Below the pieces are notes generated by a model. That model worked only from the letters and a program-made list of their open reading frames with translations, was not told the origin of the DNA and made no database searches. The position numbers and the translations under genes were made by a program. Shown piece by piece: positions 19,898-37,146 of a DNA stretch of 64,000 bases; position 1 is the first letter of the stretch; every line of letters begins with the position of its first letter. Source of the stretch: Rubrobacter indicoceani (GTDB lineage: Bacteria; Actinomycetota; Rubrobacteria; Rubrobacterales; Rubrobacteraceae); contig NZ_CP031115.1 of assembly GCF_003568865.1 (NCBI RefSeq), positions 744,001 through 808,000 of the forward strand. The letters run 5' to 3'.

Positions 19898-19971
19898 TAC
19901 GCGATATCTCCGTTCTTGAAAGATAGGTTGTCTTATCTGCATACCCCTGCAAAGCGGTCGTTCAAACGGGT

Positions 19972-33650: not shown

Positions 33651-33941
33651 ATGGCGCAGCAGAGTGCAAGCAACGTAGGCAGGGAGCGGGACGACCGGGA
33701 CAGAGGGTACGTCCAGAGATTTGCGGAGACCAAGCCGTCCACCAAGACGACCGAGCTTATCGTCTGGGCCCTGACGGTAATCGGTATCCTGATCGCCGCC
33801 GCGCTCGTCGGCGCCGACGCTCAAGGCGAAGGCGGCTTCGGAGCGACCGACGCGTGGAGGTACATCGCTTTTGTTTCGATCGGTTACATGGTGAGCCGGG
33901 GTCTTGCGAAGGCCGGTTCCCAGCAGCCGCAGGACTCGTAA
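33651..33941 (+). CDS. Small two-helix membrane protein of a stress cluster
   Basis: A 96-residue protein. Acidic/basic N-terminus (RERDDRDRGYV), then KPSTKTTELIVWALTVIGILIAAALVG (helix 1, about 30-54) and a second helix AWRYIAFVSIGYMVSRGLAKAGS (about 66-88). The KPSTKTTE and GYMVSRGLAK segments recur in unnamed actinobacterial proteins. ATG follows GGAGGTAACGA. It is first in a run of envelope/stress-type genes, separated from the next by a strong hairpin. Confidence 0.7.
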   Translation: MAQQSASNVGRERDDRDRGYVQRFAETKPSTKTTELIVWALTVIGILIAAALVGADAQGEGGFGATDAWRYIAFVSIGYMVSRGLAKAGSQQPQDS

Positions 33942-33976
33942 GAAGCGCAGCGCGAGCAGGTCGATCGAACAGGACG

Positions 33977-34009
33977 CACGGGCCGGGGCTGCAAAAGCCC
34001 CGGTCCGTG
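33977..34009 (+). terminator. Strong hairpin between stress genes
   Basis: CACGG-CCGGGGCT and AGCCCCGG-CCGTG form a 13-base-pair stem with one G-T mismatch and a GCAAA loop, followed only by CTTTGC. It is a weak terminator or an mRNA-processing or attenuation hairpin ahead of the next gene. Confidence 0.6.
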
Positions 34010-34109
34010 CTTTGCAACACCGGTGAGGGCCGGGACGCGGCGGGGGAGATCATCGCGCCCGGTAAGGCCGGCACACGATACGAGCATACGATGCAGAGGG
34101 AGAACAGCC

Positions 34110-34721
34110 GTGGAGCGAGACTCCAGCAGCAACGCGCAGAACACCGCGAGTGGTAGCGCGACCGAGCAGACAAAGCAGCAGACCCGGCAGGTCGCCCACC
34201 AGGCCCGGCGGAAAGCGGATGAACTGACAAGTCAGGGGAGCGAGCAGATCAAATCCCAGCTTGCCGCCCAGAAGCACCAGGTCGCCCAGAGGATGATGCC
34301 CGTGCAGACGGCGCTCCGGGAGACCGCTCAGCAACTTCGGAAGCAGGATCAGAGATCGGTCGGCCAGTACGCGGATCAGGCGGCAAACCAGGTCGAGCGG
34401 TTCTCCGGATACCTCCGCGAGACGGATGTAGATCAGATGCTGGAGGAGACGCGGAGCCTCGCCCGACGCAGGCCGGCTCTTTTCCTCGGTGGCGCGACCA
34501 TACTGGGTTTTCTCGGCGCCCGGTTTCTCAAGAGCTCTTCCCAGAGTGGAAGCTCCGCAGGAAACGGCTCCGCCGCGACCGGCGGGCCGACGGGGTCTCA
34601 CAGGACCCGCGAGCCCGCTCTCGGCGTCGGTGAGCGGGAACCGGCCGCACCCGCAGGAGGCCAGCCCCTGAGCGACCGGTACGAACAGATGGGGCGGACA
34701 GAGCCCCCACGAAGCCTTTAG
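34110..34721 (+). CDS. Gln/Ala-rich amphipathic helical protein with one TM
   Basis: A 203-residue protein. Residues 1-110 are strongly Gln/Ala/Arg/Lys-rich helices (TEQTKQQTRQVAHQARRKADEL, then QTALRETAQQLRKQDQRS), followed by ETRSLARRRPALFLGGATILGFLGARFLK, a short glycine-zipper transmembrane segment, and a Gly/Ser/Pro-rich tail. It resembles envelope-stress and nutrient-deprivation proteins found beside holin-like genes. GTG 34110 has GGGAG upstream; further upstream starts are inside the hairpin region. Confidence 0.65.
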   Translation: MERDSSSNAQNTASGSATEQTKQQTRQVAHQARRKADELTSQGSEQIKSQLAAQKHQVAQRMMPVQTALRETAQQLRKQDQRSVGQYADQAANQVERFSGYLRETDVDQMLEETRSLARRRPALFLGGATILGFLGARFLKSSSQSGSSAGNGSAATGGPTGSHRTREPALGVGEREPAAPAGGQPLSDRYEQMGRTEPPRSL

Positions 34722-34730
34722 GAGGGGTGG

Positions 34731-35126
34731 ATGCAGGGTAAAGAAGACCGCTCCCTCGGAGAGCTCTTCGCGCAGATGGCGCAGGAGACCTCCACGCTCG
34801 TGCGTCAGGAGGTGGCGCTGGCGAAAGCCGAGATAGGCCAGAAGGCCTCCCGGGCGGGCAGGCACGCAGGAATTCTGGCCGTCGGCGGTGCGGTCGCGTA
34901 CGCGGGGTTTCTGGCGATCATCGCCGGGGTGATCTATTTGCTGGCCGACCTCGATTTCGTGCCCCTGTGGCTTGCGGCTTTCGTGGTCGGGCTCGTAGTG
35001 GCCGCCGTAGGTTACTTCCTTATACGCAAGGGGCTCGACGCCCTCAAGCAAGAGGATCTGGCCCCCCGACAGACCATGGAGATACTAAAGGAGGATCAGC
35101 AATGGATAAAAGATCAGAAGAGGTAA
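34731..35126 (+). CDS. Phage holin family protein (Holin-X type)
   Basis: A 131-residue protein. The N-terminal amphipathic helix LGELFAQMAQETSTLVRQEVALAKAEIGQKAS (about 9-39) and two transmembrane helices (about 47-70, 75-97) match the actinobacterial putative holin family (DUF1469). Despite the name, this family is chromosomal and no phage genes are nearby. It overlaps the next gene by 25 bases, so the two are coexpressed. Confidence 0.8.
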   Translation: MQGKEDRSLGELFAQMAQETSTLVRQEVALAKAEIGQKASRAGRHAGILAVGGAVAYAGFLAIIAGVIYLLADLDFVPLWLAAFVVGLVVAAVGYFLIRKGLDALKQEDLAPRQTMEILKEDQQWIKDQKR

Positions 35127-36067
35127 GGCGCGACCCGCTTGACGGAGGGGCGAGAAACCCGGACCCCCTTGCCGGAGACCCGGGCTTCGATGCCGCTACG
35201 GAGTCTTTCAGGCCGGAGGCGATAAACCACGAGGCTCTCAACGAGGAGACCGAGGTTGATGAGATCAAAGTAACCCGGATGGAGATCGAACGCACCCGCG
35301 CTCAGATGAGCGAGACGACCGACGCTATCCAGAACAGGCTCAGCGCCGAGAATATGAAAGAACAGGCGAAGGACAGGGTCCGGGAGGCTACCGTGGGAAA
35401 GGCCGAGGGGGCGTGGTCCACGATGATGGACACTATCAGGCAGAACCCGATGCCTGCGGCGTTGACCGGGATAGGGCTGACCTGGCTGTTCATGAGCGGC
35501 AAAAAGCAGGATGCGCCTCGCGTGCGCTACCGCAAGAGGCCATACGACACCTACGGCTACCGCGCCCCTTACGACGAGCCGTCCCCTTACGATGATCCCC
35601 GTTACGAAGAACGTAAAATGGGCGGGTCCTCGGCGGGCGAGGCGCTGAGCCGGGCGCAGGACAGAGCCGGAGAGACCGCCGGACGCGCCCGGGACAAGGT
35701 CGGGGAGACCGCCGATCATGCCCAGGACAAGGCGGGGGAGATCGTCCACCGGACGCAGGATCAGGCAAGCCGACTCGGGGATCAGGCCCAGCATCAGGCT
35801 CGACGGGCCCGGGACGGCTTTGAGCGGATGTCGCGGGAGAACCCCCTTGCCATAGGCGCCCTCGCCGTCGGGATCGGAGCGGCCGTCGGGCTTGCAATCC
35901 CCGCGACCGGCAAGGAGAACAGGGTAATGGGCGAGACCCGGGACAACTTCGTGGAGAAAACCCAGGAGAAAGCCCAGGAAGCCCAGCAGAAGGTCCAGCA
36001 GGTCGCCCACGAAGCACAGAGTGCGGCCCAGCAGGAGGCCGACAATCAGGGTCTCACCAATCAGTAG
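35102..36067 (+). CDS. DUF3618 protein with LEA-like 11-mer repeats
   Basis: A 321-residue protein starting at ATG 35102 (GGAGGATC upstream). DUF3618 is at about 55-95 (EIERTRAQMSETTDAIQNRLS). A Gly/Pro zipper (NPMPAALTGIGLTWLFMSG) is next, then a Tyr/Pro/Asp-rich linker. From about residue 185 come tandem 11-residue units: AQDRAGETAGR, ARDKVGETADH, AQDKAGEIVHR, TQDQASRLGDQ and AQHQARRARDG. A second Gly-rich helix (AIGALAVGIGAAVGLAIP) and a Gln/Glu helix close it. The 11-mers match group 3 LEA proteins, which protect membranes and proteins during drying; that role is inferred. Confidence 0.75.
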   Translation: MDKRSEEVRRDPLDGGARNPDPLAGDPGFDAATESFRPEAINHEALNEETEVDEIKVTRMEIERTRAQMSETTDAIQNRLSAENMKEQAKDRVREATVGKAEGAWSTMMDTIRQNPMPAALTGIGLTWLFMSGKKQDAPRVRYRKRPYDTYGYRAPYDEPSPYDDPRYEERKMGGSSAGEALSRAQDRAGETAGRARDKVGETADHAQDKAGEIVHRTQDQASRLGDQAQHQARRARDGFERMSRENPLAIGALAVGIGAAVGLAIPATGKENRVMGETRDNFVEKTQEKAQEAQQKVQQVAHEAQSAAQQEADNQGLTNQ

Positions 36068-36196
36068 AGGCGGCGTAGAGCTTTATCGAGGGGTCGGGGG
36101 CCGTTCCGGCTTCGGACCCCGGCCTCCCGCCCCTGTTCGTTCTCTGCGCCGGGCGCGGTCAGGGAATACTCGAAGAGCGGAGGCAGGGATTGCGGT

Positions 36197-36400
36197 ATGA
36201 ACGGTAGGGACGAACACGAAGGACGGGTGAGTCGTCAGGCTACCGAAGGGGAGCGCAGACCCGGCGAGGCGGGGTTTATCTTTGTCGGCGGTGGCGGCAA
36301 CGGATGCGCTGGCAGGGGATGCCTGTTCTGGATCGTCCTGAGCATAGTAGCGAGCGTTCTTCTGACGGTCGGGGTCAACCTCGTGCTGGCCGTGTTCTAG
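36197..36400 (+). CDS. Small Gly/Cys membrane protein
   Basis: A 67-residue protein. A hydrophilic N-terminus (GRDEHEGRVSRQATEGERR) leads to FVGGGGNGCAGRGCLFWIVLSIVASVLLTVGVNLVLAVF, a single helix with GC.GRGC ahead of it. It is unassigned. It sits just before a second, even smaller gene with the same GC-plus-helix design, so the two look like a related pair. Confidence 0.6.
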   Translation: MNGRDEHEGRVSRQATEGERRPGEAGFIFVGGGGNGCAGRGCLFWIVLSIVASVLLTVGVNLVLAVF

Positions 36401-36426
36401 GATCTAGCGACCGGAAAGGGAAGCCG

Positions 36427-36546
36427 ATGTTTCGCAGGGGACCGGATGGAAGTCGTGGCTGTTGCGTGGTCGTGCCGATTGGATGCCTCCTTATGGTACT
36501 GACGGTGTTGTTGCTCTCCGGGGCGGCCTTCGCGGCGTTGCTCTAG
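36427..36546 (+). CDS. 39-residue single-helix membrane peptide
   Basis: ATG 36427 has AAGGGAAG upstream and a 40-codon frame. The peptide starts MFRRGPDGSRGCC, then IGCLLMVLTVLLLSGAAFAALL as one transmembrane helix, with Cys residues flanking it. It shares the SRGCC/GCL pattern with the upstream gene. Too short for family assignment, but codon choice, ribosome site and helix support expression. Confidence 0.5.
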   Translation: MFRRGPDGSRGCCVVVPIGCLLMVLTVLLLSGAAFAALL

Positions 36547-36552
36547 GCGGCG

Positions 36553-37146
36553 TCAGAGGCGGGCGTCGAACTTCGAGATCAGGGTCTTCCTGTTCTTGTG
36601 CCCGGCTTCGTAGTTGCGGAGGGTCTCTATATCGTCCCTGGAGAGACCCTGCATCTTTTTCTCGACCTCTCTGACCGTCAGGCTTTCGTAGCCGTTGAGC
36701 GGGAGCGGGTCGTCCTTCCGGGCCTCCCGGCCTTTTCTCTTTGCCGCCGGAGCGTTGCCGACGTACTGCTCGCCCTGCTTTGAAGCCTGGCGTTTCTTCT
36801 GGTCGGTCTCCTTTTTCTCCCGCTCGCTGAGGTTCTCCCAGGCCTCTTTCGGGAGATACCGTTCGGTCTCGGAGTTCTCCGAGTCGCCCTTCCGGGCGTC
36901 TGCCGAGCCTTCCTTTGTCTGCCACTCCTCGTCCGTCCACTTTTCGAGGTTCTTCTGGTCGTCGTCCTTTTCGCCCCTGTAGCCGCCCCCCTGCTTCTCG
37001 TACTCCTGCGAGAGCATCTGGGACTTCCGGGCCGACCACTGACCGGGCTTGCCCCCCTTGCCGCCCTTTTTTATCTTCTCCTTTAGCCTCTCGCGGAGTT
37101 CTGGCTCGGTGTACTTCTCTTCATAGTCTTTCTTTCCCTTTGCCAT
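36553..37146 (-). CDS. DUF5872-type small basic protein
   Basis: A 197-residue hydrophilic, Lys/Glu-rich protein. Core pattern YTEPELRERLKEKIKKGGKGGKPGQWSARKSQMLSQEYEKQGGGY with the following W-rich EKWTDEEWQTKEG and RYLPKEAWENLSEREKKETD matches DUF5872. The C-terminal 45 residues (YESLTVREVEKKMQGLSRDDIETLRNYEAGHKNRKTLI) form a separate helical module seen in other actinobacterial proteins. It is likely nucleic-acid-binding or stress-related; function unproven. The gene faces the two membrane peptides convergently. Confidence 0.7.
   Translation of the reverse strand: MAKGKKDYEEKYTEPELRERLKEKIKKGGKGGKPGQWSARKSQMLSQEYEKQGGGYRGEKDDDQKNLEKWTDEEWQTKEGSADARKGDSENSETERYLPKEAWENLSEREKKETDQKKRQASKQGEQYVGNAPAAKRKGREARKDDPLPLNGYESLTVREVEKKMQGLSRDDIETLRNYEAGHKNRKTLISKFDARL

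What the first reader, a model, noticed from the sequence alone, without database searches (positions are those of the whole stretch)
33651..36546. Envelope/desiccation module with LEA-like 11-mers in a DUF3618 protein
Five consecutive 11-residue units (AQDRAGETAGR, ARDKVGETADH and so on) follow the DUF3618 region. Neighbours are a holin-family protein, a Gln/Ala helical protein and tiny TM peptides. Coupled overlap with the holin-like gene supports coexpression. The set fits drying or radiation tolerance.
Basis: partly seen in the sequence, partly recalled or inferred. Interest (0 to 1): 0.55.

Follow-up and report, generated by a model that had tools for sequence, protein, structure and literature searches.

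The report
Membrane-tethered LEA-like helix in stress-type operon
A bacterial operon of small membrane proteins carries an 11-residue repeat that does resemble plant drought-protection proteins, but it sits in front of a membrane anchor, looks most like the stress proteins YqjD and ElaB of E. coli, and has no demonstrated link to drying or radiation.

Summary
Residues 185-239 of the DUF3618 protein (35102-36067) form five 11-residue units (lag-11 z 8.1; 0 of 5000 shuffles). The best three units fit the group-3 LEA consensus at 23 of 27 positions; the next best of 222 window ORFs scores 18. The holin-family gene, Gln/Ala protein, tiny membrane peptides and a 25-nt overlap are all there, and the block recurs in Rubrobacteraceae relatives. 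The 11-residue period persists in relatives up to Chloroflexota and Gemmatimonadales although the letters change.

The drying/radiation reading is not supported. LEA_4 scores 14.7 bits against a cut-off of 51.1. The module is in 12 of 39 family genomes and missing from the one same-genus genome. No stress promoter was found. Repeat plus following hydrophobic segment align with most of E. coli YqjD (hhalign 91%), and the neighbour is in YqjE's Pfam family. Best reading: a stress-type membrane operon of the DUF3618/holin-X and YqjD-YqjE kind, in which a LEA-like amphipathic helix is tethered to the inner membrane to protect it, perhaps also to dock ribosomes. Published regulation of related operons fits; function here is inferred. 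New variant of a known kind.

The parts
33651..33941 (+). g1: 96-aa protein with one strong hydrophobic segment; first gene of the block
   Evidence: ORF; tblastn match in 6 of the 15 related loci searched; hydropathy 2.66 at residues 36-54; no Pfam or NCBIfam match over cut-off
34110..34721 (+). g2: Gln/Ala-rich helical protein (GTG start) with one anchor-like segment RRPALFLGGATILGFLGARFLKSS; family without a Pfam or NCBIfam model
   Evidence: AlphaFold2 all-helical, mean pLDDT 70
34731..35126 (+). g3: Phage_holin_3_6 (holin-X) family membrane protein, two hydrophobic segments; same Pfam family as E. coli YqjE
   Evidence: PF07332 E 1.7e-29; YqjE in PF07332; hydropathy
35102..36067 (+). g4: 321-aa DUF3618 protein with the 11-mers
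   Evidence: PF12277 E 1.1e-8
35102..35126 (+). 25-nt overlap of the holin gene end and the DUF3618 gene start
   Evidence: coordinates; the same 25 nt follows from the gene ends for 10 of 11 family relatives (L028's start unresolved)
35282..35389 (+). DUF3618 match, residues 61-96
35444..35500 (+). first, weak hydrophobic segment, residues 115-133 (NPMPAALTGIGLTWLFMSG)
   Evidence: below 1.0 in the window, 1.0-1.4 in the 12 of 15 rows where it was detected
35654..35818 (+). five 11-residue LEA-like units, residues 185-239
35657..35741 (+). 33-bp tandem DNA repeat encoding the units
   Evidence: Tandem Repeats Finder
35654..35899 (+). YqjD-like stretch, residues 185-266 (11-mers plus anchor)
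   Evidence: hhalign of A4 with E. coli YqjD residues 16-98, probability 90.9
35846..35902 (+). second, strong hydrophobic (glycine-zipper-like) segment, residues 249-267
   Evidence: hydropathy 2.15; invariant N/P/G positions in A1 and A4
36197..36400 (+). g5: 67-aa peptide with one hydrophobic segment
   Evidence: relatives; a 31-33-aa relative also lies between g1 and g2 in several family genomes, not in the window
36427..36546 (+). g6: 39-aa peptide with one hydrophobic segment and conserved RGCC...GC

Best explanation
The region is an operon-like set of small inner-membrane proteins of the DUF3618/holin-X and YqjD-YqjE kind. The DUF3618 protein combines a DUF3618 segment and weak hydrophobic segment with a C-terminal half built like YqjD/ElaB: a long 11-residue-repeat amphipathic helix directly in front of a glycine-rich membrane anchor, then a charged helical tail. 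Proposed working (inferred): the anchor holds the helix on the cytoplasmic face; under osmotic, oxidative or stationary-phase stress the helix lies along the inner leaflet, LEA-like, and supports the membrane; g2 is a second anchored helix and holin-X a small membrane partner made by coupled translation. Whether it also docks ribosomes, as YqjD does, is open. Shown: repeat, family assignments, gene order, periodicity in relatives, YqjD-like profile match. Inferred: topology, induction, membrane protection.
For: Profile match of repeat plus anchor to E. coli YqjD residues 16-98 (probability 90.9, E 1.2e-6); in a control with the YqjD helix shuffled and its anchor kept, scores averaged 30.1, maximum 33.4 of 60, against 44.1 for real YqjD. 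ElaB 62%. Negative controls YqjK and YqjE: probability 0.1 and 0.2. The holin and E. coli YqjE are both in PF07332; yqjD-yqjE-yqjK are adjacent in E. coli. Lag 11 is best in 12 of 15 aligned DUF3618 proteins and second best in 3; helical moment peaks at 97-100 degrees in 12 of 12, as for a 3-11 helix. The order g2-holin-DUF3618 is kept in 16 of 19 named loci (2 cut by contig end, 1 rearranged) including Chloroflexota, Herpetosiphonaceae and Gemmatimonadales. The L058 protein joins a DUF3618-like segment to the g2 anchor. Own genome: 2 of 2 DUF3618 genes lie next to a holin-X gene. Literature: two DUF3618+holin-X pairs strongly up under Actinoplanes sigma-H (PMC11205660); PA3040-3042 (YqjD/YqjE-like) induced by envelope stress, AlgU and stationary phase (PMC11302039); yqjC, yqjD and yqjE up under RpoS (PMC10746276); loss of ElaB damages membranes under H2O2 (PMC6389858). 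More K/R before than after the anchor in 11 of 15 rows, equal in 2, fewer in 2.
Against: Pfam DUF883 is below cut-off (15.2 of 25.4 bits) and DUF883_C was not reported for the window protein. g2 has no profile match to YqjD or ElaB (6% and 1%), and the hhalign test found none between the holin alignment and YqjE although Pfam joins them. The g4 model is poor (mean pLDDT 53). If the first hydrophobic segment spans the membrane, the repeat would lie outside the cell. No stress promoter upstream of g1 in the window; 5 of 6 relatives have a sigma-70-like one instead. No expression data for this organism.
Confidence: 0.5

Rival explanations
1. One reading: a dedicated LEA-type desiccation/radiation protection module.
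For: 23 of 27 consensus positions, unique among 222 window ORFs; the only PF02987 match in the whole genome at E up to 1 is this repeat. Single LEA 11-mers can raise E. coli drying survival (PMC8670023, passages seen), and the Deinococcus protein DosH is a group-3 LEA with eight 11-mers (PMC10295645).
Against: LEA_4 14.7 bits and 19.0 bits against a cut-off of 51.1; only five units, tethered to a membrane anchor; found in 12 of 39 family genomes and not in the same-genus genome G001; trio widespread in groups not chosen for dryness; a marine-named Rubrobacter (R. marinus) has it.
Confidence: 0.15
2. A ribosome-docking/hibernation factor, the YqjD counterpart of this lineage.
For: Profile match to YqjD; YqjD binds ribosomes and locates them at the membrane in stationary phase (PMC10746276).
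Against: The matched part is helix plus anchor; nothing identifies a ribosome-binding surface; the repeat changes its letters freely among relatives, which suits a lipid or bulk-surface contact better than a specific one.
Confidence: 0.15
3. The 11-mers are only a helical spacer or coiled coil that sets distance from the membrane; period kept by slippage of a 33-bp DNA repeat.
For: TRF array; one unit fewer, exactly 11 residues, in L030 and L033; poor letter conservation; PDB profile hits are helical bundles and ATP synthase b.
Against: The period persists in proteins with unrelated letters (L028, L053) and the amphipathic moment is significant in 12 of 12 (P 0.019 or less).
Confidence: 0.15
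4. Phage or lysis remnant: the holin gene makes a true holin.
For: Family name only.
Against: PF07332 proteins above cut-off occur in 36 of 39 family genomes and in E. coli as YqjE; neighbours are an HD protein, a methyltransferase and DUF5872, no lysin.
Confidence: 0.05

Closest known systems
E. coli yqjCDEK operon (YqjD DUF883, YqjE PF07332, YqjK), with ElaB as YqjD paralog
   Same: Anchored helical protein next to a PF07332 protein; C-terminal half of g4 aligns with YqjD 16-98; yqjE overlaps the next gene as here.
   Different: Here the YqjD-like part is fused behind DUF3618, follows the holin gene instead of preceding it, and continues into a tail beyond the anchor; g2, which holds YqjD's place, has no profile match to it; YqjK has no counterpart by profile.
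Actinobacterial DUF3618 + holin-X pairs (e.g. Actinoplanes ACSP50_3381/3382 and 4921/4922; PMC11205660, passages and table seen)
   Same: Same two Pfam families, adjacent; second pair of the window's own genome is of this short kind.
   Different: The long form with 11-mers, second anchor, g2, g1 and tiny peptides is accessory: g2 in 12 of 39 family genomes.
Pseudomonas aeruginosa PA3040-3042 (PMC11302039, passages seen)
   Same: YqjD-like plus YqjE-like genes in an envelope-stress and stationary-phase operon.
   Different: Third gene unrelated by description; no DUF3618 named in the passages seen.
Group-3 LEA proteins (LEA_4, PF02987), incl. Deinococcus DosH
   Same: 11-residue units with the same residue classes.
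   Different: Few units, membrane anchor, DUF3618 fusion, score below cut-off.

Membership tests
DUF3618 (PF12277) | Profile score over the curated cut-off | tested here: met
   35.5 bits, cut-off 24.9, residues 61-96
Phage_holin_3_6 / holin-X (PF07332) | Profile score over the curated cut-off | tested here: met
   102.7 bits, cut-off 28.4
Phage_holin_3_6 / holin-X (PF07332) | Holin (membrane-hole/lysis) activity | not testable with these tools
   Needs expression; family name is not evidence
Group-3 LEA (LEA_4, PF02987) | Profile score over the curated cut-off | tested here: not met
   14.7 bits and 19.0 bits in the genome search; cut-off 51.1
Group-3 LEA (LEA_4, PF02987) | Tandem 11-residue units fitting the residue-class consensus | tested here: met
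   Lag 11 z 8.1; 23 of 27 positions for three units; consensus taken from PMC10295645, with A and T counted as hydrophobic by my choice
Group-3 LEA (LEA_4, PF02987) | Hydrophilic, free soluble protein | tested here: not met
   Strong hydrophobic segment 249-267, mean 2.15
Group-3 LEA (LEA_4, PF02987) | Dehydration-linked expression or protection | not testable with these tools
   No expression data
DUF883 / YqjD-ElaB (PF05957, PF19029) | Pfam score over cut-off | tested here: not met
   DUF883 15.2 bits, cut-off 25.4; DUF883_C not reported for the window, 23.8 of 27 in relative L059
DUF883 / YqjD-ElaB (PF05957, PF19029) | Helix followed by a glycine-rich C-terminal anchor, alignable to YqjD | tested here: met
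   hhalign 90.9% and helix-shuffle control
DUF883 / YqjD-ElaB (PF05957, PF19029) | Anchor is the C-terminus of the protein | tested here: not met
   A tail of about 54 residues follows
DUF883 / YqjD-ElaB (PF05957, PF19029) | Ribosome binding | not testable with these tools
   Needs co-sedimentation

The most novel reading that the evidence does not exclude
The long DUF3618 proteins are a cross-phylum class of membrane-tethered LEA proteins: LEA-type 11-mer helices are not only free cytosolic protectants but are built into inner-membrane anchors as a standing coat, and the helices of YqjD and ElaB are worn-down members of the same design (ElaB 20 of 27 and YqjD 17 of 27 consensus positions, lag 11 the best lag in ElaB). 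This would join ribosome-hibernation tethers and desiccation proteins.
Probability: 0.2. Interest if true: 0.65.

Novelty: new variant of a known kind. Interest (0 to 1): 0.42.

Why it matters
DUF3618 and holin-X genes are common in Actinomycetota (DUF3618 in 51 of 149 genomes sampled from the phylum) and essentially unstudied: the library held 1 paper with the word DUF3618. A link of the long form to YqjD/ElaB, and a conserved amphipathic 11-mer helix, would give them a testable role: a tethered helix that guards the membrane under stress. The g2 family, with no Pfam or NCBIfam model, travels with them.

Tried and rejected
Radiation/drying as shown function: rejected as unsupported (distribution; no promoter). 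True LEA_4 member: rejected by score. Phage origin: rejected. Stress promoter GTTT-N13-17-GGGTA: one match in the whole window, at 19942, at chance level; a looser scan of 17 upstream regions found a GTTT-17-GGGTA only before g2 of L028 and a one-mismatch form before the window genome's short pair. g2 as a YqjD homologue: no profile match, so only the general build is alike. 11-residue period in the C-terminal tail: not significant (P 0.13 or more in 12 of 12 rows). 11-residue period in g2: suggestive only; lag 11 best in 7 of 17 rows and the best lag significant at 0.05 in few. AlphaFold2 of g4 had mean pLDDT 53, so no fold search was run; g2's model is plain helix, so a fold search would say little. 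PDB profile search gave only helical look-alikes.

Rows dropped: L045 and L052 (runs of X) were left out of A4; L054 and L057 lack the DUF3618 gene (contig end); L058 (rearranged) was left out of A4. A1 and A4 overlap: nine family proteins of A4 come from the same genomes as A1 rows, so the two counts are not independent. Shuffle controls keep composition but not general helix periodicity.
Full report
What is there. The block 33651-36546 holds six genes on the + strand: g1 (96 aa), g2 (Gln/Ala-rich, GTG start at 34110), g3 (holin-X, PF07332), g4 (DUF3618, 35102-36067), g5 (67 aa) and g6 (39 aa, start 36427). g3 and g4 overlap by 25 nt. A convergent gene (36556-37146) closes it.

The repeat. 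Residues 185-239 of g4 are five 11-residue units; lag 11 has z 8.1 and no shuffle of 5000 reached it. The DNA has a 33-bp tandem repeat there. Using the residue-class consensus of group-3 LEA given in PMC10295645 (passages seen), with A and T counted as hydrophobic, the best three units fit 23 of 27 constrained positions (shuffles 12.7 +- 1.3); of 222 window ORFs the next best has 18. In the whole genome the only match to the LEA_4 profile at E up to 1 is this repeat, at 19.0 bits with a cut-off of 51.1. So the resemblance is real and specific, but it is not membership.

Conservation. In the family alignment (A1, 12 rows) lag 11 is best in 11 of 12, and the hydrophobic moment peaks at 97-100 degrees in all 12, which is the 3-11 helix geometry described for synuclein, apolipoprotein and perilipin repeats (PMC6164224, passages seen). 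In the wider alignment (A4, 15 rows, reaching Chloroflexota, Herpetosiphonaceae and Gemmatimonadales by record title) lag 11 is best in 12 and second in 3, and the consensus fit is 17 to 24 of 27. The letters differ greatly (for example L028 AQQKAQETQQQ repeats, L053 SVSDTASNVAS repeats), and two family rows lack exactly one unit. The invariant residues lie mostly outside the repeat, in the second hydrophobic segment and the motif IPxTxKExxxMGExRD behind it.

What the protein is built like. Hydropathy gives one strong segment, 249-267, and one weak one, 115-133. The 11-mers and the strong segment align with residues 16-98 of E. coli YqjD: hhalign probability 90.9, E 1.2e-6 for one comparison. 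With the YqjD helix shuffled and its anchor kept, 60 trials averaged 30.1 and reached 33.4, against 44.1 for the real one; the anchor alone gives 59.6%, so both parts contribute. ElaB gives 62%; YqjK and YqjE give 0.1% and 0.2%. A Gemmatimonadales relative, L059, also touches DUF883_C (23.8 bits, cut-off 27) and the ElaB model (19.1 of 139). The DUF883 Pfam cut-offs are not met by the window protein, and a tail follows the anchor, so I call it YqjD-like in its C-terminal half, not a DUF883 member.

Operon context. g3 is in PF07332, the family of YqjE, which in E. coli follows yqjD and overlaps yqjK. In tblastn over 15 related loci the order g1, g2, g3, g4, g6 recurs in family genomes, with g5-like peptides before g2 and/or after g4. 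The trio g2-holin-DUF3618 in this order is complete in 16 of 19 named loci; L054 and L057 end too early, and L058 has holin first and then one protein joining a DUF3618-like segment to the g2 anchor, again overlapping by 25 nt. Of 29 loci (from a DUF3618 search of 149 genomes of the phylum in which 51 had a match), 21 have a holin-X hit within the fetched flank and 15 have both holin and g2; models were built from 12 family proteins, so these are lower bounds. The window's own genome has a second, short holin+DUF3618 pair with a 4-nt overlap.

Distribution. g2 occurs in 12 of 39 genomes of the family, 8 of 22 good-quality ones and 4 of 13 genera; the one other genome of the same genus lacks it and lacks the long DUF3618 protein. 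PF07332 genes are in 36 of 39. So the short pair is the standing equipment and the long LEA-like module an accessory. Nothing here ties it to dryness or radiation; a marine-named species, Rubrobacter marinus, carries it.

Regulation. No sigma-70-like or GTTT-GGGTA promoter was found in 300 nt upstream of g1 in the window; 5 of 6 relatives have TTGA(C/T)T-16-TA(n)3T at -82 to -88, a housekeeping rather than stress type. In print, two DUF3618+holin-X pairs are among the most raised genes when Actinoplanes sigma-H is expressed (PMC11205660, passages and table); PA3040-3042 of P. aeruginosa is induced by envelope stress and in stationary phase (PMC11302039, passages); yqjC, yqjD and yqjE are raised by RpoS, and YqjD and ElaB bring ribosomes to the membrane (PMC10746276, passages); loss of ElaB weakens membranes under H2O2 (PMC6389858, abstract and one section).

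Mechanism. Best supported: the 11-mer helix, held next to the membrane by the glycine-rich anchor, lies on the inner leaflet under stress and supports it. Charge bias puts the helix side inside in 11 of 15 rows, which fits YqjD's reported layout. This is inference from build and analogy; the model of g4 is too poor to use.

Novelty. I searched the library for DUF3618 (1 paper), for YqjD with YqjE and actinobacteria (0), for Rubrobacter with late embryogenesis abundant (2, listing only) and for actinobacterial holin-X with stress (3, listing only). In these listings I saw no account of LEA-like repeats in DUF3618 proteins; subscription journals are mostly not held. I rate it a new variant of a known kind.

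Noticed in passing
36556-37146 (-): 197-aa very hydrophilic protein (GRAVY -1.74, 9.1% Gly, 44.7% charged), near DUF5872 (27.0 of 27.5 bits) and weakly like the lipid-droplet protein Rv1109c model (31.5 of 110 bits). By composition it is as much a hydrophilin candidate as g4.
   Followed up: partly
L058:4450-5471: Holin-X followed, with a 25-nt overlap, by one 217-aa protein that joins a DUF3618-like segment to the g2 helix and anchor: a fusion that links the two families.
   Followed up: partly
window genome G000:C1:2805272-2805777 (L002, L035): Second, short holin-X + DUF3618 pair with a 4-nt ATGA overlap; the short DUF3618 protein ends in a single anchor.
   Followed up: yes
L025, L026, L027, L030, L031 upstream of g1: Shared AT-rich block with TTGACT-ATACC at -82 to -88 upstream of g1 in relatives, not found in the window.
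   Followed up: partly
36197-36400 and 36427-36546; relatives: Two families of tiny one-segment membrane peptides with conserved Cys (GCLFW...; RGCC...GC); g5-like copies sit at two places of the block in several relatives.
   Followed up: partly
G016:C117:22154-22693; L052:360-1000: g2 reading frame interrupted or split in two pieces in these draft genomes, perhaps assembly errors.
   Followed up: no
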